Part shown: positions 21,013 through 32,233 of the stretch, piece by piece | Layout: every line of letters begins with the position of its first letter | How positions within the stretch are numbered: the stretch's first letter is position 1 | Assembly: GCA_900316795.1 (NCBI GenBank) | Contig: ONEF01000002.1 | Span: 62,001 to 126,000, forward strand | Direction of reading: 5' to 3' | Length of the DNA: 64,000 nucleotides | DNA from: an uncultured Bacteroidales bacterium | GTDB taxonomy: Bacteria > Bacteroidota > Bacteroidia > Bacteroidales > UBA932 | Made by a program: the position numbers and the translations under genes | The notes under the pieces: generated by a model | Databases searched by the model: none | Told to the model about the DNA's origin: nothing | What the model saw: the letters and a program-made list of their open reading frames with translations, nothing else

Positions 21013-24000
21013 ATGAAGCATCTCAAATCCATCAAGAAAGTCCTCATCCTTGGCTCCGGAGCCTTGAAAATCGGTGAGGCGGGAGAATTCGACTATTCTG
21101 GTTCCCAGGCACTCAAAGCAATGAAGGAAGAGCACATCAAGACTGTGCTGATTAATCCGAACATTGCCACAGTCCAGACATCTGAAGGCATCGCCGACAA
21201 GATTTATTTCCTTCCTGTAACCCCATATTTCGTTGAAAGGGTAATTGAAAAAGAAAAACCGCAAGGCATCTTGCTTTCCTTTGGAGGGCAGACCGCCCTC
21301 AACTGCGGAGTTGAGCTCTACAGGAGCGGAGTTCTGGAAAAGTACAAGGTCCAGGTACTGGGCACCCCAGTCCAGGCAATAATGGACACCGAAGACAGGG
21401 AACTGTTTGTCAGGAAACTGGACGAAATCAATGTCAAAACCATAAAGAGCCATGCCGTAGAAAGCATAGAAGACGCTCTCAAGGCCGCCAAAGAACTGGG
21501 CTACCCCGTGATAGTCCGTGCCGCCTACGCACTTGGAGGGCTCGGAAGCGGATTCTGCAACAACGACTCCGAGCTGAAGAAACTTACCGCCAAAGCTTTC
21601 ACGTTCTCGCCCCAGGTACTGGTGGAGAAATCTCTGAAAGGATGGAAAGAAATTGAATATGAAGTAGTTCGGGACAGATTTGACAACTGCATCACCGTGT
21701 GCAACATGGAAAACTTCGACCCGCTTGGAATACATACCGGTGAAAGCATTGTGGTAGCCCCTTCACAGACTCTGACAAACCGCGAGTATTTCCTCCTCAG
21801 GGAACTTTCCATAAAGATAGTCAGACATATAGGAATAGTTGGAGAATGCAATGTCCAGTACGCCTTCGACCCGTCCAGTGAAGATTACAGGGTCATAGAG
21901 GTAAACGCAAGGCTAAGCCGTTCTTCAGCCCTGGCTTCCAAGGCAACAGGATACCCGCTGGCCTTCGTGGCCGCAAAACTGGGGCTTGGATACGGTTTGT
22001 TTGACTTAAGCAACTCTGTGACAAAAAACACGCCGGCTTTCTTTGAGCCTGCCCTGGATTACATTGTCTGCAAGATCCCTCGCTGGGACCTTTCCAAATT
22101 CTATGGCGTCAGTCACCTGATAGGCAGCAGCATGAAGAGCGTGGGAGAAGTCATGGCCATAGGCAGAAGCTTTGAAGAGGTAATCCAGAAAGGTCTCAGG
22201 ATGATCGGAAGAGGAGCGCACGGCTTCGTGGGCAACAGGGAGATGAAGGTGGAGGATATAGAAAAAGAGCTCAAGGAACCTACAGACAGCCGCATCTTTG
22301 TAATAGCCAAGGCTTTTGAGCAAGGCTACACGGTGGACAAGGTCCACGAGGCCACAAAGATCGACAAATGGTTCCTGGAGAAACTCTACAACATCTACGT
22401 TACCGGGAAGGAGCTTTTAAAGTTCAAGGATCTCAGGGAGATTGACCGAGACACGATGCTCATGGCCAAGCAGAACGGTTTTTCCGATTTCCAGATCGGC
22501 AGACTCGTCTTCAAGAAGAAAAAGGATCCGGACACCTTTGCCGTAAGCGTAAGAGAATACAGGAAATCACTGGGAGTCCTTCCGGTTGTAAAGCAGATAG
22601 ACACTCTCGCAGCGGAGTTCCCTGCCAAAACCAACTATCTCTATCTGACATATCACGGGACATCCCACGACATATCCTACGAGAAAGACCACAAGTCAAT
22701 CATAGTAATGGGAAGCGGCGCTTACCGCATAGGAAGCTCCGTGGAATTTGACTGGTGCAGCGTCAACTGCCTCAACACCATCAGGAAATCAGGATGGAGG
22801 GGCGTGATGATAAACTACAATCCGGAGACTGTTTCCACTGACTACGACATGTGCGACCGCCTCTATTTTGACGAGCTCACCTATGAGAGAGTGATGGACA
22901 TCTATGACCTTGAGTCTCCTCACGGAGTTGTCGTAAGTGTTGGGGGCCAGATCCCTAACAACCTGGCTATGAGGCTCAACGATGCTAACGTACGTATTCT
23001 TGGCACATCTGCACAATCTATAGACAACGCTGAAGATAGGCACAAGTTCTCAGCGATGCTGGACCGTCTTGGAATCAACCAGCCGCGCTGGAGCGAACTT
23101 ACCACCCTTGATGACATACACAGCTTTGTTGAAAAGGTCGGTTTCCCGGTTCTGGTCAGACCATCATACGTTCTCAGCGGAGCTGCAATGAATGTCTGCT
23201 CCAACAACCATGAACTCAAACAGTTCCTGCGCCTGGCCGCCGAGGTTTCCAAAAAGCATCCTGTAGTGGTCAGCGAATTCATCCAGCATGCCAAGGAAAT
23301 CGAGTTTGACGCCGTGGCAAAGGACGGGGAGATAGTAGCTTACGCCATCAGCGAGCATATCGAGTTCGCCGGTGTCCACTCCGGAGACGCCACCATCCAG
23401 TTCCCTCCTCAGAAGCTCTATGTAGAAACTGTCCGCAGGCTAAAGAAAATTTCCAGGAAGATAGCAAAGGAACTCAACATAAGCGGCCCTTTCAACATAC
23501 AGTTTATGGCAAAGAACAATGACATTCTGGTCATAGAATGTAACCTCAGGGCATCAAGAAGTTTTCCTTTTGTATCTAAAGTACTGAAGATAAACCTTAT
23601 AGAGCTGGCTACAAAAATAATCACCGGAGAAAAGTTCAAGGTTCCTGACAAAAGCGCCTTCGATCTGGACTATGTCGGAATCAAAGCCTCGCAGTTCTCA
23701 TTCTCCAGACTGCTCAAAGCTGATCCTGTCCTGGGAGTGGACATGTCATCTACCGGAGAAGTCGGCTGCATCGGTGACGACACTTCGGAGGCTGTCCTGA
23801 AATCAATGCTTTCTGTAGGCTACACGATTCCGGAAAAAGGAATACTTCTTTCTACCGGAGACGGAAAACAGAAGGCTGAAATGCTGGAGGCCTGCCAGAC
23901 GCTTCATCGCAGAGGATACAAGCTTTACGCCACGGGAGGAACTTATAGATACCTGAAAGACAATAAGATTCAAGTTACTGAAGTATTCTGGCCAAGTGAA

Positions 24001-24237
24001 AAAGGAAAGACTCCCCAAGCCATAGACCTTATCCAGAACAAGACCGTAGATATGGTAGTGAACATACCAAAGAACCTGTCCAAGACAGAACTTGACAACG
24101 GATACAAGATAAGGCGGGCCGCTGTGGACTTCAACATCCCGCTTCTGACCAACACCCGTCTTGCCAGCGCTTTCATCAGCGCATTCTGTACAATTGACCC
24201 TGACGATATACAAATCAAAAGCTGGGATGAATACTAA
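21013..24237 (+). CDS. carB: Carbamoyl-phosphate synthase large subunit
   Basis: Makes carbamoyl phosphate from bicarbonate, two ATP and CarA-derived ammonia. 1074 residues, the standard length, with two homologous ATP-grasp halves. The first starts VLILGSGALKIGEAGEFDYSG and contains VIVRAAYALGGLGSG; the second has VMGSGAYRIGSSVEFDW and VLVRPSYVLSGAAMNV. The C-terminal regulatory MGS-like domain (about 935-1074) includes YKLYATGGTYRYL. The ATG follows the carA stop with no gap, indicating translational coupling. The ALKIGEAGEFDYSG and AYRIGSSVEFDW blocks are well kept; no truncation is visible. Confidence 0.97.
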   Translation: MKHLKSIKKVLILGSGALKIGEAGEFDYSGSQALKAMKEEHIKTVLINPNIATVQTSEGIADKIYFLPVTPYFVERVIEKEKPQGILLSFGGQTALNCGVELYRSGVLEKYKVQVLGTPVQAIMDTEDRELFVRKLDEINVKTIKSHAVESIEDALKAAKELGYPVIVRAAYALGGLGSGFCNNDSELKKLTAKAFTFSPQVLVEKSLKGWKEIEYEVVRDRFDNCITVCNMENFDPLGIHTGESIVVAPSQTLTNREYFLLRELSIKIVRHIGIVGECNVQYAFDPSSEDYRVIEVNARLSRSSALASKATGYPLAFVAAKLGLGYGLFDLSNSVTKNTPAFFEPALDYIVCKIPRWDLSKFYGVSHLIGSSMKSVGEVMAIGRSFEEVIQKGLRMIGRGAHGFVGNREMKVEDIEKELKEPTDSRIFVIAKAFEQGYTVDKVHEATKIDKWFLEKLYNIYVTGKELLKFKDLREIDRDTMLMAKQNGFSDFQIGRLVFKKKKDPDTFAVSVREYRKSLGVLPVVKQIDTLAAEFPAKTNYLYLTYHGTSHDISYEKDHKSIIVMGSGAYRIGSSVEFDWCSVNCLNTIRKSGWRGVMINYNPETVSTDYDMCDRLYFDELTYERVMDIYDLESPHGVVVSVGGQIPNNLAMRLNDANVRILGTSAQSIDNAEDRHKFSAMLDRLGINQPRWSELTTLDDIHSFVEKVGFPVLVRPSYVLSGAAMNVCSNNHELKQFLRLAAEVSKKHPVVVSEFIQHAKEIEFDAVAKDGEIVAYAISEHIEFAGVHSGDATIQFPPQKLYVETVRRLKKISRKIAKELNISGPFNIQFMAKNNDILVIECNLRASRSFPFVSKVLKINLIELATKIITGEKFKVPDKSAFDLDYVGIKASQFSFSRLLKADPVLGVDMSSTGEVGCIGDDTSEAVLKSMLSVGYTIPEKGILLSTGDGKQKAEMLEACQTLHRRGYKLYATGGTYRYLKDNKIQVTEVFWPSEKGKTPQAIDLIQNKTVDMVVNIPKNLSKTELDNGYKIRRAAVDFNIPLLTNTRLASAFISAFCTIDPDDIQIKSWDEY

Positions 24238-24251
24238 ACCAGAGTATTTGC

Positions 24252-24259
24252 TAAATTTG
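24252..24259 (+). promoter_or_regulatory. -7 element upstream of the antiporter gene
   Basis: TAAATTTG fits TAnnTTTG, 21 bases before the ATG at 24281. No clear -33 box lies at the expected distance, so partial read-through from carAB is also possible. Confidence 0.4.
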
Positions 24260-24280
24260 GAGTCTTAAAACAAAAGTATT

Positions 24281-25276
24281 ATGACTGTTCCGATTCTCCT
24301 TATCATAGCTGCCCTCATACTTGTTGCAGGAGGAGCACATTTTCTTGTTGAAGGTTCTTCAAGGATAGCCTCCAAGTTCGGCATTTCCGACATGGTCATC
24401 GGCATGACCATCGTTGCCATAGGAACATCCATGCCAGAACTTGTCACCAGCATCCTAGGTGCTTTGAAAGGGAGTGCCGGTATTGCTGTAGGAAACGTGG
24501 TCGGTTCCAATATCTGCAACATTCTCCTGATTGTGGGATTAAGCGCCCTGATCTATCCGCTGTCAGTATCAAAGGAGAACATAAACAGAGATATGCAGTT
24601 TGTGCTCCTTTCCACTATAGTGTTGTTGGTAATAGCTTTCGACTCACAGATAGACAGCCTTACCATTGACGACAACATGGCATCAAACTTCATATCCAGG
24701 AGCGACGGAATCATACTGATACTTTTCTTCATAATCTTCATGTTCTACTCAGTCATAAGTGCCAAGAGAAAAGAAGGGAACGAAAACCGGGCAAATACTG
24801 AAAGTTCAGAAGAACCGAAGAAGAAAGTCAACATCCCCCTTGCCCTTCTTATGGTAGCAGGAGGTCTTGGAGCTCTGATCTGGGGAGGTCAGCTGCTGGT
24901 TGACAACGCCATAATAGTTGCAAAGCACTATGGGGTAAGTGATGTTGTCATAGGTTCAACGATAGTGGCAATCGGAACCAGCCTCCCTGAACTGGCAGCC
25001 AGTGTTGTCGCTGCCATCAGAAAGAAAGTTGGAATGGCGTTGGGCAATATTGTCGGAAGCAACATCTTCAACGTTTTCCTAATACTTGGAGGCAGTGCGG
25101 TGATAACTCCTCTCCAACTCGAGAGTATAAACCATATCCATTTCGTATTCCTTCTCCTTGCTACCCTGCTGCTGCTTCTGGCTGCCAGAACCAGCATGAA
25201 GATCCGCAGGATAGAAGGATTCCTCCTGCTTGCTTTCTACGCTCTCTACATCACTGTAAACCTTTCTGTGAAATAG
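24281..25276 (+). CDS. Calcium/sodium antiporter, CaCA family (YrbG-like)
   Basis: A 331-residue inner membrane exchanger with ten or so hydrophobic helices in two inverted repeats. Each repeat has the two alpha motifs: AIGTSMPELVTS with GNVVGSNICNILLI in the first half, and AIGTSLPELAAS with GNIVGSNIFNVFLI in the second. The central charged loop (about 160-180, with EEPKKKVN) is short. The glutamates in both PEL motifs expected for Ca2+ binding are present. It probably exports Ca2+ in exchange for Na+. Confidence 0.92.
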   Translation: MTVPILLIIAALILVAGGAHFLVEGSSRIASKFGISDMVIGMTIVAIGTSMPELVTSILGALKGSAGIAVGNVVGSNICNILLIVGLSALIYPLSVSKENINRDMQFVLLSTIVLLVIAFDSQIDSLTIDDNMASNFISRSDGIILILFFIIFMFYSVISAKRKEGNENRANTESSEEPKKKVNIPLALLMVAGGLGALIWGGQLLVDNAIIVAKHYGVSDVVIGSTIVAIGTSLPELAASVVAAIRKKVGMALGNIVGSNIFNVFLILGGSAVITPLQLESINHIHFVFLLLATLLLLLAARTSMKIRRIEGFLLLAFYALYITVNLSVK

Positions 25277-25300
25277 TTTCCTGAGTTAGGTTTTAAATGT

Positions 25301-25356: not shown

Positions 25357-25833
25357 ATGATAATCAACAAACAGGTAGGAATGTTCCTGAACCTTGTCCA
25401 CAACCGGTTCAAGCAATATGTCACTGCCATTTTCGAAGAACAGGGCTTCAATATAACCCCTGAGCAGTTCCTTGTCATGGACGCTTTGTGGGACGAGGGA
25501 GTGCTGACGCAACAGCAGATAGCCAATTACATGCTCAAAGACAAGAACTCGGTCGTCAAACTTGTTGACGGGCTGGAAGAGAGGAAACTGGTCAAGCGGG
25601 CGAGCAATCCAAAGGACAGGCGGCAGAATCTGATCGAGGTGACAGAATATGCCATTGCCGTCAAAGACAAGATAACGGAACTGGCCATGGAAGCCGTTGA
25701 CCACATCATCAGCGGTATATCCAAAAGAGATCTACAGACTTTCATCAACGTGCTCAGCAAGATGGCAGAGAACATGAACAACGACATTGACCTGCTGGCG
25801 CTTGCGGCCAAATACCCCACAAAGAAACAATAG
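25357..25833 (+). CDS. MarR-family transcriptional regulator
   Basis: A 158-residue winged-helix regulator from ATG 25357; an upstream ATG at 25297 precedes the promoter box. The helix-turn-helix and wing are readable: EEGVLTQQQ-type recognition region (LTQQQIANYMLKDKNSVVKL) followed by RRASNPKDRR-like wing residues (RASNPKDRRQN). N- and C-terminal helices form the usual dimer interface. It is the first gene of the operon and ends two bases before hdrC1, so it most likely controls its own operon. The ligand is unknown; some MarR proteins sense thiols or oxidants, but no conserved sensing cysteine is visible here. Confidence 0.88.
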   Translation: MIINKQVGMFLNLVHNRFKQYVTAIFEEQGFNITPEQFLVMDALWDEGVLTQQQIANYMLKDKNSVVKLVDGLEERKLVKRASNPKDRRQNLIEVTEYAIAVKDKITELAMEAVDHIISGISKRDLQTFINVLSKMAENMNNDIDLLALAAKYPTKKQ

Positions 25834-25835
25834 CT

Positions 25836-26531
25836 ATGGGAAAACTGTATGACAGGCTGATGCAGGACTACAGGCTTAAGGAAGGTCTCAACGCCTGCAT
25901 AAACTGCGGCACTTGCACGGCGATCTGCCCTGCCGCGGAGTTCTACCGCTACGATCCCAGAAGGATCGTGGACATAGTCCAGCATCAGGATGACTCCCAG
26001 ATAGAAGAACTCCTCAAAAGCGATACCATTTGGTACTGCGGAGAATGTCTCAGTTGCGTGACCAGATGCCCCCGCAACAACAAGGCCGGCCTTATTATAA
26101 TGGCGCTCAGAAGTTTGTCCATCCAGACAGGCTTCTTCATGGAATCTGAAAAAGGCAGACAGATGTACCTCTTGTGCAAAGACCTCAACAGCAACATTCT
26201 CAACTATGGTTATTGTGTTTATCCAAGGACATTCAAATATGACGGGCACATGGAGGCCGGACTTGTCTGGGAATGGGTGGAGAAAAACATGGACGACGTT
26301 TATGACAGACTTGGTGCCAATCTCGACAAAGAAGGCCCGGGGGCAGTCAGAAAGATTCCGCAAAAAGACCTGGATGAACTTAAAAGGATCTACGATGTGA
26401 CCGGAGCTACAGAAATGCTTGAAAATGTCAAGAGAGCCGGACTGGAAAAAGCCAGGGAACTTGGACTTACCGAAGAGGAGTACTGCCAGAAGTTGTATTC
26501 TGAGTGCAGCCCCAAACATTTCAACCATTAG
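25836..26531 (+). CDS. HdrC-like iron-sulfur subunit (C1)
   Basis: A 231-residue soluble protein with two [4Fe-4S] motifs near the N-terminus: CINCGTCTAICP and, about 45 residues later, CGECLSCVTRCP. This is the heterodisulfide reductase subunit C arrangement. The C-terminal 130 residues are helical and extend beyond short HdrC proteins. It is the first structural gene of the operon, three bases before the HdrB-like gene, and would carry electrons between the flavin subunit and the HdrB-like subunit. Confidence 0.85.
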   Translation: MGKLYDRLMQDYRLKEGLNACINCGTCTAICPAAEFYRYDPRRIVDIVQHQDDSQIEELLKSDTIWYCGECLSCVTRCPRNNKAGLIIMALRSLSIQTGFFMESEKGRQMYLLCKDLNSNILNYGYCVYPRTFKYDGHMEAGLVWEWVEKNMDDVYDRLGANLDKEGPGAVRKIPQKDLDELKRIYDVTGATEMLENVKRAGLEKARELGLTEEEYCQKLYSECSPKHFNH

Positions 26532-26534
26532 GAT

Positions 26535-27599
26535 ATGATTTACGAAGGAAAAAAGAAAATCTGGGCAGATTACCAGAAAGAAATACCGGAAGACCACTAC
26601 TTCTATGTAAGAAGCTGCATCAGGCAGTCTTTCTTCCCTGCTTCCGAAGCCACCTTCCTGGATATAACAAGGAATAAACTTGGCAAGGATATCTTTGAAA
26701 CTGAGCATCATACTACTTGCGGAGGTATAGCCTACCATTCAGACACCATACCTCAGGAAACCGTTATGACCATCATAGCCAGGCAGTTTGCCCTTATGAA
26801 GAAATACGGGTACGAGAATTATGTCTGCTCCTGCATCACATCATTCGGCCTGTATTGCGAGACTCTGGAGACCTGGAGGGAATATCCTGAGCTCCAGCAG
26901 AAAATCGCCGAGAATCTCTGGAAAAGCTGCAAACTGGAATTTGCCAAGCCTAAATTCCTGGTACACGCCAGCGACCTCATCTTCAAATACAGGATGCAGA
27001 TAGCATCCAAGAGCAAGTTCAAGCTTGTCAACAAGAATACCGGAGAACCTCTGAGGGTGGTTGAACACATTGGCTGCCATTATTCAAAGATGTTCCCTTC
27101 CAAGGGAGTCGGAGGAGCCGAGTATCCTTATGTGCTTGTAGGTATGGTCGAAGCCTGGGGGGGCCAGATCATTGACTATCCGGAAAGAAGGCATTGCTGC
27201 GGATTCGGGTTCCGCCAATATCTCATCAAGGGTAACAGAGGATATTCAGTCTCCAACACCCACAAGAAGTTCGAAAGCATGGAACCTTTCAAACCCGACA
27301 TGATAATCACCAACTGCCCGGGTTGCCCGTACTTCCTCGACAGGTGGCAGTATGTCATCGCTGAGACTCAAGGGAAGACATACGGTGAAAACGGTCATGG
27401 GATTCCTGTGTTCACATACGAGGAAGTGGCTGGTCTGGTGATGGGATATGACCCTTGGGACCTTGGACTACAGACGCATCAAGTTAGCGTTGAGCCGCTG
27501 CTGGACAAAATCGGAATACCTTATGACCCGGCAAAGAAATATCTGGGAAGGAATGGCAAATATCTTGGGGAGCCCCAAAAACCTCATTGTCTAAAATAA
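26535..27599 (+). CDS. HdrB-like CCG-domain subunit (B1), N-terminal CCG degenerate
   Basis: A 354-residue protein of the heterodisulfide reductase subunit B / CCG family. The C-terminal CCG domain is complete: GCHYSK (about residue 180), RRHCCGFGF (about 220) and NCPGCPYF (about 258), the cysteine set that binds a noncubane [4Fe-4S] cluster. The N-terminal domain is altered: TTCGG replaces CCG and CSC replaces CxxC. Thus it probably carries one catalytic-type cluster, unlike methanogen HdrB, which has two. It sits between HdrC-like and HdrA-like genes. The thiol or disulfide substrate is unknown. Confidence 0.85.
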   Translation: MIYEGKKKIWADYQKEIPEDHYFYVRSCIRQSFFPASEATFLDITRNKLGKDIFETEHHTTCGGIAYHSDTIPQETVMTIIARQFALMKKYGYENYVCSCITSFGLYCETLETWREYPELQQKIAENLWKSCKLEFAKPKFLVHASDLIFKYRMQIASKSKFKLVNKNTGEPLRVVEHIGCHYSKMFPSKGVGGAEYPYVLVGMVEAWGGQIIDYPERRHCCGFGFRQYLIKGNRGYSVSNTHKKFESMEPFKPDMIITNCPGCPYFLDRWQYVIAETQGKTYGENGHGIPVFTYEEVAGLVMGYDPWDLGLQTHQVSVEPLLDKIGIPYDPAKKYLGRNGKYLGEPQKPHCLK

Positions 27600-27604
27600 G
27601 CCTT

Positions 27605-28624
27605 ATGAAGAAAAATATACTGATAATCGGAGGCGGGCCGGCCGGTATGGAGGCAGCAGCCAATCTGGACAGACTTGGTTACAATGTAATCCTCATAGAA
27701 AAAGACAAACAGTTGGGAGGTCACCTGGCCAAGTGGGACAGACTGTTCCCGGACGGAGTTTCCGCAAAAAAAACTTTGGACGCCCTCACTGCAGAGCTTT
27801 CCGGCGTCAAATGTTTTACTGAGACCAATATCCAGTCTATCAATGTGCTGGACAAGTCTTACAACGCTATCCTTTCCAACGGGATAACCGTATTGGCTGA
27901 CGCGGTCCTGATGGCCTCTGGATTTGACCTTTTCAAAGCCGAAAAGAAAGAAGAATACGGATACGGAATATATGATGGGGTAATGACAAATGCAGACCTT
28001 GAAAAAGCCTTCCGTGAAAAGACTCTCCCATCCAAGGCACCAAAGGCCATAGGGTTTGTCCATTGCGTTGGCTCCCGTGACGAGAAGGCCGGAAATCCTG
28101 CATGTTCCAAAGTCTGCTGCGCCACAGCTGTAAAACAAGCATGTGAAATCAAGGAGGTTTATCCAGATGCGGATGTTTACTGTTTCTATATGGACCTCAG
28201 GATGTTCGGACGCCACTATGAAGACCTGTATCTGAAAGCCCAGAAAGAATATGGAATCAGGTTCATTCGCGGAAGGGTTTCCGAAGTAGCTGAAACTATG
28301 GACAACAGGCTTTTGGTCAAGGCAGAAGATACATTGTCCAGCAAGCCGCTGAAAGTAACCTTGGATATGCTGGTGCTGATGGCAGGAATGAGACCGTCAG
28401 AAGCCGGAAGAAGTGTAGGCCGCCAGCTTAACCTCACAACAGAGGATGACGGATTCTTCTCATCCTCCGACAATATGCTGGCAATACAGAAGAGCAAGCT
28501 TCCAGGGTTCTTCTACGCAGGAGCCTGCACCGGAGCCAAAACCCTTCCGGATACGCTGCACGAAGCCCGCAGCGCAGCCCTGGAAATTGACAGGTACGTC
28601 AAAGATAATTTCAAGGAGCAATGA
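27605..28624 (+). CDS. Short HdrA-like FAD/iron-sulfur subunit
   Basis: A 339-residue flavoprotein from ATG 27605; an in-frame TTG at 27587 would overlap the upstream gene. The N-terminus is a Rossmann FAD site (IGGGPAGMEAA). The HdrA cluster motif is seen in HCVGSRDEKAG and PACSKVCC, then the family block RMFGRHYEDLY. The C-terminus has a second flavin-contact stretch (FFYAGACTGAKTLPDTLHEA). It lacks the extra ferredoxin and insert domains of methanogen HdrA and is in the size range of the short HdrA found in sHdr and Qmo-type systems. It overlaps the next gene by four bases (ATGA). Confidence 0.87.
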   Translation: MKKNILIIGGGPAGMEAAANLDRLGYNVILIEKDKQLGGHLAKWDRLFPDGVSAKKTLDALTAELSGVKCFTETNIQSINVLDKSYNAILSNGITVLADAVLMASGFDLFKAEKKEEYGYGIYDGVMTNADLEKAFREKTLPSKAPKAIGFVHCVGSRDEKAGNPACSKVCCATAVKQACEIKEVYPDADVYCFYMDLRMFGRHYEDLYLKAQKEYGIRFIRGRVSEVAETMDNRLLVKAEDTLSSKPLKVTLDMLVLMAGMRPSEAGRSVGRQLNLTTEDDGFFSSSDNMLAIQKSKLPGFFYAGACTGAKTLPDTLHEARSAALEIDRYVKDNFKEQ

Positions 28625-28947
28625 TAGATTTCGGTTTTACAGTAAGTCCAAGTTCCAGAATAAATCTGGACGAAGTTGACAAGAAATCTTTCGTAGCCTT
28701 GTCAAAGATTGAGCCTGACGTTGTCAAATGCATGGCTTGCGGAAGCTGCTCCGCCAGTTGCACTGTATCACAGTTCCAGCCGACCAGTGTCAGGAAAGCC
28801 ATACTTTCCCTTCAGAACGGGCAAATCAGCCAGGCTATGGATTTTCTCAAACACTGCATGTTGTGCGGCAAATGCACAATGGTCTGCCCAAGAGGCATTA
28901 ACACAAGGCACCTTATCATCTCAATCCAAAAAATCTACGGAAAATGA
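28621..28947 (+). CDS. Small HdrC-like ferredoxin (C2)
   Basis: A 108-residue protein with CMACGSCSASC and CMLCGKCTMVCP, two [4Fe-4S] motifs of HdrC type, and little else. The first motif ends SASCTVSQ, lacking the proline after the last cysteine. It overlaps both neighbours by four bases (ATGA), so HdrA, this subunit and the membrane subunit are expected in a fixed ratio. As a second HdrC-like protein it probably connects the flavin subunit to the membrane-bound subunit. Confidence 0.85.
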   Translation: MIDFGFTVSPSSRINLDEVDKKSFVALSKIEPDVVKCMACGSCSASCTVSQFQPTSVRKAILSLQNGQISQAMDFLKHCMLCGKCTMVCPRGINTRHLIISIQKIYGK

Positions 28948-30857
28948 CCAACATTCTGTCCGTCACACTGCAAGCAGTAACACCTGAAGGTATAATAGAC
29001 AGGTATCCAAATAGTTACAATCATTTCGTATTGCCGTTTGTCATTGGTATATCCTTTATACTGGTGTACTTGCTGATTGGTCTGGTCCGGGTACTCTATC
29101 ACCTGAGCGGTGAAGACAGGATCAAACTCCTGAAGTCTCTCTTCAACCCGAAGACAGCTCTGAAAAACCTCAAGGACATTTTCTGCGACTGCCTCCTTCA
29201 CACAAAGATATGGAAGAGAAAACCACTTTTGGGCTATATGCACTCGGCGATTGCTTTCGGATGGTTCATGCTGATAGTGCTAGGTCATCTGGAAGTTTAC
29301 ATCTTTGCTCCAAGACACCTTGAAGGAATATCTGAAGGCTCCCTTTACTACCCTATTTTCTACAGGTTCTTTATCTGGATAAACCCGGCACACGAAACCT
29401 TGAGAGGAACGGTGTTCTTCTTCCTGATGGACTTCTTTCTTCTGTATGTGCTGAGCGGCATAGCTCTGGCCATGTTCAAGAGAGTAAGGTCCATAGCCCT
29501 GGGAATGAGGCATACAACCAAACCGTCACTGGCAGACAGGGTTGCCCTTTACTCTCTTTGGGCAATTTTTCCTCTGAGGCTTTTAGCAGAAGGCTTTACA
29601 GCAGACCTCAGCGGAGGAAGTTTTCTGACCAAGCCTGTAAACTGGTTGTTCAAGGCATTCTTCGGCAATGAACTTAATTTCATGCCTACATGGTGGGCCT
29701 ATTCCATTTGCCTTGGCTTGTTCTTCCTTGCCATGCCTTTTTCCAGGTATATGCACATACTTACTGAACCGGTCCTGATATTGTTCCGCAACGCCGGCCT
29801 CAAAGTCAGAAAACCCCGCAAAGGTTTTGCGGAAGCTGAAATATACGCCTGCTCCAGTTGCGGCCTGTGCATAGACGCTTGTCCGATGAACACCCAAAAG
29901 AAGAACCTCAAATACTCTTCTGTCTATTTCATAAGATTTCTGAGAAGGCACAACAACAAGAAAATCAATGAAATCGCTGAGAAATGCCTGATGTGCGGCA
30001 AATGCGCGGCCTTATGCCCTGTCGGCGTTAATTCCCCGGACATAAGGAGAGTCCAGAGAGAAACCATCAACAATTCCGTAGGTTACGATTACTCTTACTT
30101 GAAAGATTACTCTGACAAAGCCGCTGCCGAGCTTTCAGACAAGCCTCGTAAATCAGGGAAGGTCCTTTATTTTGCCGGCTGCATGACTCATCTTACCCCA
30201 ATGATAATCAAGTCTGTGGAGAAAGTGCTGAAGGCTGCCGATGTGGAGTTCGAGTTCATGGACAAAGACAGCGGGATATGCTGCGGCCGCCCTCTGATGC
30301 TGGCCGGAAAGACAGAAGCCGCAAGGAAAACCATCGAGGCAAACAAGAAGATCATTGAACAGTCCGGGTGCAGCATCCTTCTGCTCTCCTGCCCTATCTG
30401 CCTGAAAGTTTTCAAAGAGGAATACAACCTAGAAAATATCGAGATACTGCATTATACACAATATATAGACAGGCTCGCCAAAGAAGGGAAACTCATTCTG
30501 GAAAAGAAAGAGGGCTCTTTGGTCTATCACGATCCTTGTGAACTCGGAAGAGGTTGCGGAATCTATGATGAACCAAGAAATGTACTCTCCGGCATCGGAG
30601 AACTTAAAAAGGCACAAAAGGAAAGAGATGAGAGCATCTGCTGCGGATACAGCCTTGGCAGTCTGACCCTGGATGAAAAGGACCGCTCCAAGATTGCAGA
30701 AAGCTCTGTGGCCAACCTCATGGCAAACGCACCTGACAAGATAATTACCGCGTGCCCGATGTGCTACAAGGCAATAAGAAGCAAGGCCGATGTGCCTGTC
30801 CTGGATTTCGCCGAGATAATATCTTCCAGCATATCCGGACTCAAGCAGAATTCTTGA
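28944..30857 (+). CDS. Membrane HdrE-HdrD fusion (cytochrome b-like plus CCG domains)
   Basis: A 637-residue fusion. The N-terminal half has about five hydrophobic helices (near residues 30-50, 95-115, 150-170, 200-220 and 250-270) of NarI/HdrE type with histidines suited to heme or quinone. Then come two [4Fe-4S] motifs (CSSCGLCIDACP about 305, CLMCGKCAALCPVG about 350) and two complete CCG domains (GCMTH, GICCGRP, SCPIC; then DPCELGRGC, ICCGYS, ACPMC). It should anchor the Hdr-like complex to the inner membrane and exchange electrons with menaquinone. Similar designs occur in HdrDE and DsrMK. Direction of electron flow is not evident. Confidence 0.86.
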   Translation: MTNILSVTLQAVTPEGIIDRYPNSYNHFVLPFVIGISFILVYLLIGLVRVLYHLSGEDRIKLLKSLFNPKTALKNLKDIFCDCLLHTKIWKRKPLLGYMHSAIAFGWFMLIVLGHLEVYIFAPRHLEGISEGSLYYPIFYRFFIWINPAHETLRGTVFFFLMDFFLLYVLSGIALAMFKRVRSIALGMRHTTKPSLADRVALYSLWAIFPLRLLAEGFTADLSGGSFLTKPVNWLFKAFFGNELNFMPTWWAYSICLGLFFLAMPFSRYMHILTEPVLILFRNAGLKVRKPRKGFAEAEIYACSSCGLCIDACPMNTQKKNLKYSSVYFIRFLRRHNNKKINEIAEKCLMCGKCAALCPVGVNSPDIRRVQRETINNSVGYDYSYLKDYSDKAAAELSDKPRKSGKVLYFAGCMTHLTPMIIKSVEKVLKAADVEFEFMDKDSGICCGRPLMLAGKTEAARKTIEANKKIIEQSGCSILLLSCPICLKVFKEEYNLENIEILHYTQYIDRLAKEGKLILEKKEGSLVYHDPCELGRGCGIYDEPRNVLSGIGELKKAQKERDESICCGYSLGSLTLDEKDRSKIAESSVANLMANAPDKIITACPMCYKAIRSKADVPVLDFAEIISSSISGLKQNS

Positions 30858-30861
30858 ATTG

Positions 30862-32172
30862 ATGACAATGAATAAAAACTATAAGAAAATGGAAATCCAA
30901 CCGACAAGCTACCATTTGCAAAGCTGCCTGAGCAAAAGGCAATTTGAGGACACAGGATGGCTTATGGCTGATCCTGAGGACAAAGCACCTTCCCTCATAA
31001 GGGCTGTCTATGAAAAGAAACAGATTGAATTCAAAGACAAGTCATACGGAATCTACCGGTTTGCAGACTGGCTTCCAATAAGCCGAATGCTGAAAGGTTC
31101 TTCAGCTCCCGTCACCTACAAGAGCAAAGCGCTGGCTGAGAAACTCGGACTGAGCAATCTCTATATAACATACAGTGGCTACTGGCCGGAGAAAGGTGTG
31201 ACGATGAACACATGCTCATTCAAGGAAACGGAAGCCTATTCAGTGTGCGGAAGACTTAAAGACACGGGCAGGATTCTTGTTGTAGCATCTGCCGGAAACA
31301 CTGCAAGGGCTTTTGCCAGAGTTTGTTCAGACAACAACATCCCGTTGGTGATCGCCATACCTGAAGACAATCTGAACGCATTGTGGTTCAAGGAGAAACT
31401 CAACAGCTGCGTTAAAGTTCTTTGTTCTCCTAAAGGAAGCGACTACTTTGACGCCATTGCCCTTGCTGCCAAACTCAACGCCTCGCCATTGTTCCTTGAA
31501 GAAGGCGGTGCCAAGAATGTAGCCAGAAGAGACGGCATGGGAACTACCGTCCTTTCCGCTGCTGAAGCAATAGGCAGAATTCCTGACGCATATTTCCAGG
31601 CTGTAGGAAGCGGCACAGGCACAATTGCGGCTTACGAGGCAAACCTGAGGCTTATTGAAGACGGAAGGTTCGGAAACAACATCATGAAACTGATTCCTTC
31701 ACAGAACGTACCTTTCACCCCGATGTATGATGCATGGAAGGCAGACAGCCGCAGCCTTCTTCCAATGGACGAAAACGAGGGCAGAATCAAGGCTCTGCAA
31801 ATAAAAGCCCCTGTACTCAGTAACCGCAAGCCGCCTTATTCCATAGCCGGCGGCCTGTATGATGTGCTCAAGGCATCAAACGGCAGTTTCCAGAAAGTGA
31901 CAAACGGAGAACTTACAGAAGCTTGTGACATGTTTGAGGAACTCGAGGGAGCGGATATTTACTCCGCAGCAGGAGTGGCACTTGTCAGCCTCATCAAAGC
32001 CCTCAAGGAAGGCCACGTTGCACCCGACGATACCATAATGCTGAACATCACCGGAGGCGGTGAAAAACGATTCAAGAAAGAGTTTGACTATATAAACGCC
32101 AAGGCAGACCTTGTCATGAGCCCGGAATGCAGCCCTATGGAATTGATAGAAAAGGTTACTGCCTTGTTCTAG
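30862..32172 (+). CDS. Probable cysteate synthase (PLP, threonine synthase-like)
   Basis: A 437-residue fold type II PLP enzyme starting at ATG 30862 (ATG 30868 is possible), four bases after the membrane subunit. From memory it matches methanogen cysteate synthase closely: FADWLPI, VTYKSKALAEKLGLSNLYI, YSGYWPEKG, TCSFKETEA (PLP lysine), VVASAGNTARAFA, AVGSGTGTIAAYEA (phosphate loop) and NITGGGEKRFK. Cysteate synthase makes L-cysteate from O-phospho-L-serine and sulfite; the product feeds coenzyme M in some archaea and sulfonolipids in some Bacteroidota. The archaeal N-terminal Cys pairs are not kept. Threonine synthase or diaminopropionate lyase are less likely alternatives. It is last in the Hdr-like operon. 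Confidence 0.83.
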   Translation: MTMNKNYKKMEIQPTSYHLQSCLSKRQFEDTGWLMADPEDKAPSLIRAVYEKKQIEFKDKSYGIYRFADWLPISRMLKGSSAPVTYKSKALAEKLGLSNLYITYSGYWPEKGVTMNTCSFKETEAYSVCGRLKDTGRILVVASAGNTARAFARVCSDNNIPLVIAIPEDNLNALWFKEKLNSCVKVLCSPKGSDYFDAIALAAKLNASPLFLEEGGAKNVARRDGMGTTVLSAAEAIGRIPDAYFQAVGSGTGTIAAYEANLRLIEDGRFGNNIMKLIPSQNVPFTPMYDAWKADSRSLLPMDENEGRIKALQIKAPVLSNRKPPYSIAGGLYDVLKASNGSFQKVTNGELTEACDMFEELEGADIYSAAGVALVSLIKALKEGHVAPDDTIMLNITGGGEKRFKKEFDYINAKADLVMSPECSPMELIEKVTALF

Positions 32173-32198: not shown

Positions 32199-32233
32199 GA
32201 AAACTCCCGTCCAAGGCGGGAGTTTTCGTTTTT
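32199..32233 (+). terminator. Bidirectional intrinsic terminator after the Hdr/cysteate synthase operon
   Basis: AAAACTCCCG pairs perfectly with CGGGAGTTTT around a seven-base loop and is followed by GTTTTT on the plus strand; the minus strand also ends in T-rich sequence. It closes the plus-strand operon and the convergent minus-strand small gene at 32250. Confidence 0.85.

What the first reader, a model, noticed from the sequence alone, without database searches (positions are those of the whole stretch)
25357..32172. Hdr-like membrane complex coupled to a cysteate synthase: candidate sulfite-producing and sulfonate-making operon
The seven-gene operon has the order MarR, HdrC, HdrB, HdrA (short), HdrC, HdrE-HdrD fusion, cysteate synthase, with overlaps or gaps of a few bases and one terminator. 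The C1-B1-A-C2-B2 order is that of the sHdr systems that oxidise sulfane sulfur to sulfite; here the last subunit is fused to a cytochrome-b-like membrane part. Cysteate synthase needs sulfite plus O-phosphoserine. I infer a complex that makes sulfite or balances its redox state, with quinone as partner, for cysteate and possibly sulfonolipid synthesis. No LbpA lipoate-binding protein, aprAB or dsrAB is visible in the window, which weakens the sHdr parallel. Qmo-like or disulfide-linked roles remain open.
Basis: partly seen in the sequence, partly recalled or inferred. Interest (0 to 1): 0.85.

Follow-up and report, generated by a model that had tools for sequence, protein, structure and literature searches.

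The report
Hdr-like complex feeding sulfonolipid synthesis
Gut and rumen Bacteroidales carry a membrane-bound iron-sulfur complex that, judged by the genes it travels with and the gene it stands in for, probably makes the sulfite from which these anaerobes build their sulfonolipids.

Summary
The operon is real: MarR, HdrC, HdrB, short HdrA, HdrC, a 637-aa membrane FeS protein with an EtfD-like predicted fold, and a true cysteate synthase, then a terminator. The genome also has SulA (with its diagnostic lysine) beside an SDR gene, and no CysH or CysD match. Among 247 genomes of the order, the hdr set is in 76, of which 71 have SulA, against 104 of 171 without hdr. Five other loci have sulA beside hdr, two as one run sulA-PALP-hdr, while three read sulA-cysH-PALP: hdr takes the slot of PAPS reductase. 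Of 175 SulA genomes 161 have CysH or hdr, against 20 of 72 without SulA. Among cysteate-synthase genomes hdr is in 20 of 29 lacking CysH, 20 of 84 with it; one genome per family agrees. No sulfite reductase showed in 32 of 32 genomes. Best reading: an anaerobic, ATP-free sulfite source for sulfonolipids that passes electrons to menaquinone. Sulfite as product and its oxidative origin are inferred; reductive release stays open. Not an sHdr member: LbpA and sHdrH were not found. cysS adjacency is patchy: 40 of 80 relatives lack it.

The parts
25357..25833 (+). MarR-type regulator (an upstream start at 25297 is also open)
   Evidence: ORF; PF01047 43.9 bits
25836..26531 (+). hdrC1: 231 aa, two CxxCxxCxxxCP cluster motifs
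26535..27599 (+). hdrB1: 354 aa; C-terminal non-cubane motif complete (C181, C221, C222, C261, C264), N-terminal motif reduced to three conserved Cys
27608..28624 (+). hdrA, short: 338 aa, FAD domain and one four-cysteine motif; no N-terminal and no ferredoxin domain
28621..28947 (+). hdrC2: 108 aa, two [4Fe-4S] motifs
28944..30857 (+). membrane subunit: cytochrome-b-like helices, 2x[4Fe-4S], two complete CCG motifs; EtfD/EMO-type fold
30859..32172 (+). cysteate synthase (PLP enzyme)
   Evidence: TIGR03844 461.8 bits over cut-off 324.9; PDB 9k3c 558 bits
32199..32227 (+). terminator-like hairpin, 13 pairs, followed by a T run

Best explanation
The operon encodes a membrane-anchored, sHdr-like complex (HdrC1-HdrB1-HdrA-HdrC2 plus an EtfD/EMO-type quinone subunit) that supplies sulfite to cysteate synthase. 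Cysteate then goes through SulA and a ketoreductase to capnine-type sulfonolipids. It does the job that PAPS reductase (CysH) does in related sulfonolipid makers, without sulfate activation. Shown: gene content, the recurring gene set, co-location with sulfonolipid genes, and the exchange with cysH. Inferred: that sulfite is the product; that it arises by oxidation of bound sulfane sulfur at the HdrB1/EtfD-type non-cubane clusters; that electrons leave through HdrA FAD, HdrC2 and the cytochrome-b-like part to menaquinone.
For: Own genome: true cysteate synthase in the operon; SulA with the lysine that marks cysteate transferases, 569.5 bits to PDB 7u7h, next to an SDR; no CysH, no PF01507 match, no sulfite reductase. 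Other genomes: sulA within 7.1 kb and on the same strand as hdrB in 5 of 10 same-contig pairs (0.34 expected); contiguous sulA-PALP-hdr in L208 and L209, hdr-sulA in L207, sulA-PALP-SDR followed by hdr in L205 and L206; sulA-cysH-PALP in L274, L275, L276, so hdr and cysH occupy the same slot. Counts: 71 of 76 hdr genomes have SulA vs 104 of 171 without hdr (p 2.7e-8); 161 of 175 SulA genomes have CysH or hdr vs 20 of 72 without SulA; hdr in 20 of 29 cysteate-synthase genomes lacking CysH vs 20 of 84 with it (p 2.7e-5). One genome per family: 35 of 36 vs 53 of 83 (p 6e-5); 11 of 16 vs 8 of 40 (p 0.001). Single loci: TauE/SafE sulfite exporter beside hdrC1 in L217, SulP permease after cysS in L065. 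HdrA matches the 349-aa chain 6tjr end to end, recalled as Hyphomicrobium sHdrA.
Against: No LbpA-like protein found near hdr, though sHdr is reported always to have one (passages). 48 of 175 SulA genomes have both CysH and hdr, 14 have neither. In genomes without either cysteate synthase the trend is opposite: HdrB in 33 of 72 with CysH, 5 of 62 without. Five hdr genomes lack SulA. For TIGR03844 genomes alone the one-per-family contrast is not significant, 6 of 10 vs 6 of 22 (p 0.12), and for SulA genomes of the second draw p 0.15. cysS is not next door in 40 of 80 relatives and adjacent in only three genomes of the order sample. No species-tree correction was made. No biochemistry.
Confidence: 0.58

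Rival explanations
1. The complex also supplies sulfite, but reductively: menaquinol-driven cleavage of the S-S bond in thiosulfate or S-sulfocysteine releases sulfite plus sulfide or a thiol, in line with the disulfide chemistry of HdrB.
For: Same gene linkages and exchange with CysH as above. The non-cubane motifs of HdrB and of the EtfD-type subunit belong to enzymes that cleave S-S bonds in methanogens (general knowledge). No LbpA was found, so the oxidative sHdr route is incomplete.
Against: Thiosulfate reduction to sulfite and sulfide has a very low potential and would need to be driven (general knowledge). No rhodanese or thiosulfate importer recurs in the neighbour clusters (not a targeted search).
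Confidence: 0.17
2. The complex does not make sulfite but serves another redox step or redox balance in cells that make sulfonolipids (for example a disulfide or electron-sink reaction); the link is regulatory or physiological.
For: 48 of 175 SulA genomes have both CysH and hdr; hdr stands alone in most loci of the order; in three loci it follows Pst-type transport genes (PstA, PstB, PstC scored in L071 only).
Against: Exchange with cysH inside sulA operons and across genomes; absence of any other known sulfite route in many hdr genomes.
Confidence: 0.14
3. The 637-aa protein is an ordinary EtfD/EMO that takes electrons from EtfAB of acyl-CoA dehydrogenases, and the hdr genes belong to that pathway; the sulfonolipid link is chance.
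For: The membrane subunit has the EtfD fold.
Against: No etfAB or acyl-CoA dehydrogenase was recognised among the recurrent neighbour clusters (etfAB was not searched by family); separate linkages to cysS, sulA and PALP; SulA association one per family p 6e-5.
Confidence: 0.06
4. Qmo-like: the complex passes quinol electrons to an APS reductase that makes sulfite from sulfate.
For: Qmo also has HdrA-like and HdrC/cytochrome-b parts (general knowledge); NCBIfam QmoC gives 46 bits to hdrC1, cut-off 300.
Against: No AprB match in 38 of 38 genomes (the control rang in none, so weak); no PF01507 match, thus no CysD, in G000, G008, G224 and 20 others of 38. Sat was not searched.
Confidence: 0.03

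Closest known systems
[quoted passage not shown]
   Same: C1-B1-A-C2 gene order and a short HdrA of about 340 aa that matches chain 6tjr end to end (that 6tjr is the Hyphomicrobium sHdrA is recalled)
   Different: No sHdrH and no LbpA found; the last subunit is an EtfD-type membrane protein; linked to sulfonolipid genes, not to sulfur respiration
EtfD / EMO, membrane ETF:menaquinone oxidoreductase
   Same: Whole-length predicted fold of the 637-aa subunit (M. smegmatis EtfD 9ojn, TM 0.71 by query length)
   Different: Encoded within an hdr operon; no etfAB recognised next to it
CysH, PAPS reductase
   Same: Sits between sulA and a PLP enzyme in L274-L276, as hdr sits beside them in L208 and L209; distribution exchanges with hdr
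   Different: Unrelated protein; needs activated sulfate
HdrABC of methanogens
   Same: HdrB and HdrC homology; C-terminal HdrB cluster motif
   Different: HdrA lacks its N-terminal and ferredoxin domains; N-terminal HdrB motif degenerate
Capnine/sulfonolipid pathway (cysteate synthase, SulA, ketoreductase)
   Same: Archaeal-type cysteate synthase is stated for Alistipes and Odoribacter (PMC10191378, passages); SulA of A. finegoldii (PMC9304779, passages)
   Different: No Hdr-type complex is named in the passages I saw

Membership tests
sHdr type I | shdrC1B1AHC2B2 in one syntenic cluster (PMC11582611, passages) | tested here: not met
   C1-B1-A-C2 present, no sHdrH gene between, B2 replaced by an EtfD-type membrane protein
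sHdr type I | LbpA genes associated with the cluster (PMC6067878, passages: in all cases) | tested here: not met
   One over-cut-off GcvH on another contig plus a short second match; tblastn with that GcvH found none in the hdr loci scanned at 45 bits or more. A very divergent LbpA could be missed
sHdr type I | Short HdrA with FAD and one [4Fe-4S] motif | tested here: met
   338 aa; 6tjr matched 2-331 to 1-335; C153, C166, C170, C171 invariant in 11 rows
sHdr type I | Oxidation of sulfane sulfur to sulfite | not testable with these tools
   Needs biochemistry
sHdr type II | shdrC1B1AHB3 (fused C2-B2) with etfAB in one cluster (PMC11582611, passages) | tested here: not met
   C2 is a separate gene; no etfAB among the operon genes
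EtfD/EMO | Cytochrome-b part, 2x[4Fe-4S], two CCG domains, EtfD fold | tested here: met
   (model pLDDT 77)
EtfD/EMO | Works with EtfAB | not tested
   etfAB was not searched by family
Methanogen HdrABC | Full-length HdrA with ferredoxin domains and two complete HdrB cluster motifs | tested here: not met
QmoABC | Two HdrA-like flavoproteins plus QmoC, with AprAB in the cell | tested here: not met
   One short HdrA; QmoC model 46 bits to hdrC1 vs cut-off 300; AprB 0 of 38 without a working control
Cysteate synthase TIGR03844 | Score over the curated equivalog cut-off | tested here: met
   461.8 vs 324.9 bits; 9k3c 558 bits
SulA (elsewhere in the genome) | Lysine at position 281 where Spt has alanine (PMC9304779, passages) | tested here: met
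   Query YAKSLPMP aligned with YAKSLPMP of 7u7h and FSASMTP of Spt 3a2b

The most novel reading that the evidence does not exclude
A dedicated biosynthetic, lipoate-free, membrane-bound sulfite synthase: an Hdr-type complex that oxidizes cysteine-derived sulfane sulfur to sulfite without oxygen, ATP or sulfate, passes the electrons to menaquinone, and so lets anaerobic gut Bacteroidales make sulfonolipids in place of PAPS reductase.
Probability: 0.4. Interest if true: 0.9.

Novelty: new variant of a known kind. Interest (0 to 1): 0.8.

Why it matters
Sulfonolipids of Alistipes, Odoribacter and relatives are studied as gut lipids with effects on the host, yet the source of their sulfite in anaerobes without sulfate reduction is not named in the papers I saw. 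If the reading is right, it gives Hdr-type chemistry a biosynthetic role, explains an unassigned iron-sulfur complex present in 76 of 247 sampled genomes of the order, and offers one gene set whose removal should abolish sulfonolipids. It also makes the role of lipoate in sHdr testable in a system in which no LbpA was found.

Tried and rejected
Threonine synthase for the last gene: rejected. HdrE-HdrD fusion: replaced by EtfD/EMO type. sHdr membership: fails on LbpA and sHdrH. Qmo-like: unlikely. 'hdr always with cysS': rejected; in the order sample only G000, G008 and G224 have the two adjacent, and on the HdrB tree (FastTree, 165 rows) the linkage needs 12 changes, at least 8 on well-supported branches. 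HdrC-HdrB pairs without HdrA (for example L066, L069, L075) are a separate paralogue; G054, G090 and G242 show only these and were dropped from the hdr set, leaving 76 of 79. Outside the order: HdrB at E up to 1e-40 in 3 of 316 genomes of the phylum sample, own included, the other two weak, so no independent test there. Paper searches on the link: sulfonolipid + heterodisulfide 0 papers; capnine + sulfite + cysteate 0; cysteate synthase + heterodisulfide reductase 6, by title archaea; heterodisulfide reductase + Bacteroidales + sulfite 7, passages of one read, where Hdr is that of methanogens; sulfonolipid + sulfite 8, listing only except passages of one on a plant lipid. The first ORF-based count of cysS neighbours gave 30 of 99 loci but missed L116 and L125, which tblastn shows; I use the latter.

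Limits of the counts: presence lists were copied by hand from the tables. CysH+ means E below 1e-20 (20 weaker matches dropped). SulA+ means E below 1e-90 (41 weaker matches dropped). The hdr set includes genomes where only a fragment (G012, G063) or only the B1-A part (G001, G120, G218) was seen. For SulA-HdrB distances I used the 150 SulA places that the tool listed, and for SulA-CysH 40 of the listed CysH places, so adjacency counts are lower bounds. The expectation assumes a mean genome of 3.2 Mb. The one-per-family sample takes handles G000-G119 without G008, by the family codes in the tables.
Full report
What is there. Seven genes lie head to tail on the + strand from 25357 to 32172 with gaps of -4 to 8 bases and a strong terminator-like hairpin at 32199. 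They are MarR, hdrC1, hdrB1, hdrA, hdrC2, a 637-aa membrane FeS protein and cysteate synthase. The last gene is a cysteate synthase by curated cut-off and by solved structures.

The complex. HdrA is the short kind: 338 aa, FAD domain and one four-cysteine motif, matching the 349-aa chain 6tjr end to end (that 6tjr is sHdrA of Hyphomicrobium is recalled). HdrB1 keeps the five C-terminal cysteines in all 11 aligned rows but only three in its N-terminal half. The 637-aa protein has two ferredoxin-type and two complete CCG motifs; its predicted structure (pLDDT 77, 11-row alignment) matches M. smegmatis EtfD over its length, TM 0.71 by query length, rmsd 6.9. So the anatomy suggests an sHdr-like C1-B1-A-C2 unit whose second catalytic arm is an EtfD-type quinone oxidoreductase. 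In the own genome the three PF02754 matches all fall in this cluster.

Distribution. In 247 genomes of the order, HdrB matches in 79; 76 remain after removing three with only an HdrC-HdrB paralogue. Cysteate synthase is in 67. The two are adjacent only in G000, G008 and G224, one family. Among 80 named relatives 30 have cysS directly after the membrane gene, 40 do not although at least 2 kb downstream is held, and 10 cannot be judged. After cysS comes a SulP-like gene in 9 loci (5 in the same direction) or an MscS-like gene in 8 (one member of each scored).

Link to sulfonolipids. The own genome encodes SulA with the diagnostic lysine next to an SDR gene; G008 and G224 have the same pair. In five other genomes, none with a TIGR03844 match, sulA lies near hdr: L207 hdr-sulA; L208 and L209 sulA-PALP-hdr in one run; L205 and L206 sulA-PALP-SDR, then hdr within about 2 kb. 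The PALP enzyme is threonine-synthase-like, occurs in 46 of 247 genomes and in none of the 67 with TIGR03844, 12.5 expected, which marks it as a likely second cysteate synthase; this is inference. In L274, L275 and L276 the run is sulA-cysH-PALP. hdr and cysH thus appear in the same slot. L217 has a TauE/SafE sulfite-exporter-family gene just before hdrC1, and L223 a cysteine-dioxygenase-like cupin (29.7 bits, cut-off 23) between hdrB1 and hdrA.

Counts. 71 of 76 hdr genomes have SulA against 104 of 171 others (p 2.7e-8). 161 of 175 SulA genomes have CysH or hdr against 20 of 72 without SulA. Among 113 genomes with either cysteate synthase, hdr is in 20 of 29 lacking CysH and in 20 of 84 with CysH (p 2.7e-5). 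With one genome per family (119): SulA in 35 of 36 with hdr against 53 of 83 without (p 6e-5); hdr in 11 of 16 against 8 of 40 (p 0.001); for TIGR03844 alone 6 of 10 against 6 of 22 (p 0.12); for PALP alone 5 of 6 against 2 of 18 (p 0.003). In genomes without either cysteate synthase the direction is opposite: HdrB in 33 of 72 with CysH and 5 of 62 without. 48 SulA genomes have both sources and 14 neither; five hdr genomes lack SulA. These are co-occurrence tests without a species tree.

Where the sulfite goes. PF01077 sulfite reductase is missing in 32 of 32 genomes examined, including five with CysH, with the control positive in 11 of 14. PF01507 (CysD, CysH) has no match in 23 of 38 genomes, among them G000, G008, G224, G001, G041, G081, G115, G120, G185 and G218; six hdr genomes (G018, G034, G113, G213, G108, G071) have only weak matches (E 1e-13 or worse) in frames of 390-522 aa, and G156 a strong CysD-length one. 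Three genomes with neither CysH nor hdr (G020, G076, G215) have a strong CysD-length match and may have lost CysH to assembly gaps. In these bacteria sulfite looks like a branch to sulfonates, not a step to cysteine.

Mechanism. Most likely the complex oxidizes bound sulfane sulfur to sulfite and reduces menaquinone. Product, donor and direction are inferred. The low sulfite level kept by cysteate synthase would help the thermodynamics (general knowledge). Against a close copy of sHdr stands the lack of LbpA: the genome has one over-cut-off GcvH on another contig and a short second match, and none was found in the hdr loci, whereas PMC6067878 (passages) reports LbpA with hdr-like genes in all cases. 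A reductive release of sulfite from thiosulfate or S-sulfocysteine fits the gene evidence nearly as well.

Known or new. PMC10191378 (passages) states that Alistipes and Odoribacter use an archaeal-type cysteate synthase for sulfonolipids; that part is known. In the held library I found no paper that joins an Hdr-type complex to sulfonolipids or names the sulfite source (listings; passages read). I file it as a new variant of a known kind.

Noticed in passing
32 genomes, among them the CysH-bearing G085, G145, G240, G069, G056: PF01077 sulfite reductase gives no match in 32 of 32 although five have CysH and CysD-length PF01507 matches occur: sulfate reduction there seems to stop at sulfite, perhaps for sulfonates.
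   Followed up: partly
L208:8415-9641 and relatives in 46 of 247 genomes: A threonine-synthase-like PALP enzyme in sulA operons that never co-occurs with TIGR03844 cysteate synthase; probable second cysteate synthase.
   Followed up: partly
L066, L069, L075, L246, L249, L250, L251, L254, L256, L261: An HdrC-HdrB pair without HdrA and the EtfD-like gene, a separate paralogue of unknown role; in L069 and L075 beside NifH/Mrp-like ATPase genes (by eye).
   Followed up: no
L072, L216, L217, L219, L248, L259, L262, L264, L267: A membrane-sensor-like and a response-regulator-like gene recur near hdr in nine loci of the order sample (named by eye, not scored), just upstream in those I printed.
   Followed up: no
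L223:2735-3289; L217:6574-7359: A cysteine-dioxygenase-like cupin inside one hdr operon, and a TauE/SafE-family gene before hdrC1 in another.
   Followed up: partly
L071, L076, L077: Phosphate-type ABC transport genes (PstC, PstA, PstB scored in L071) adjoin the hdr operon in three loci.
   Followed up: no
window 21013-25276: A carB-like gene and a Na/Ca-exchanger gene precede the operon and recur upstream of hdr in several relatives.
   Followed up: no
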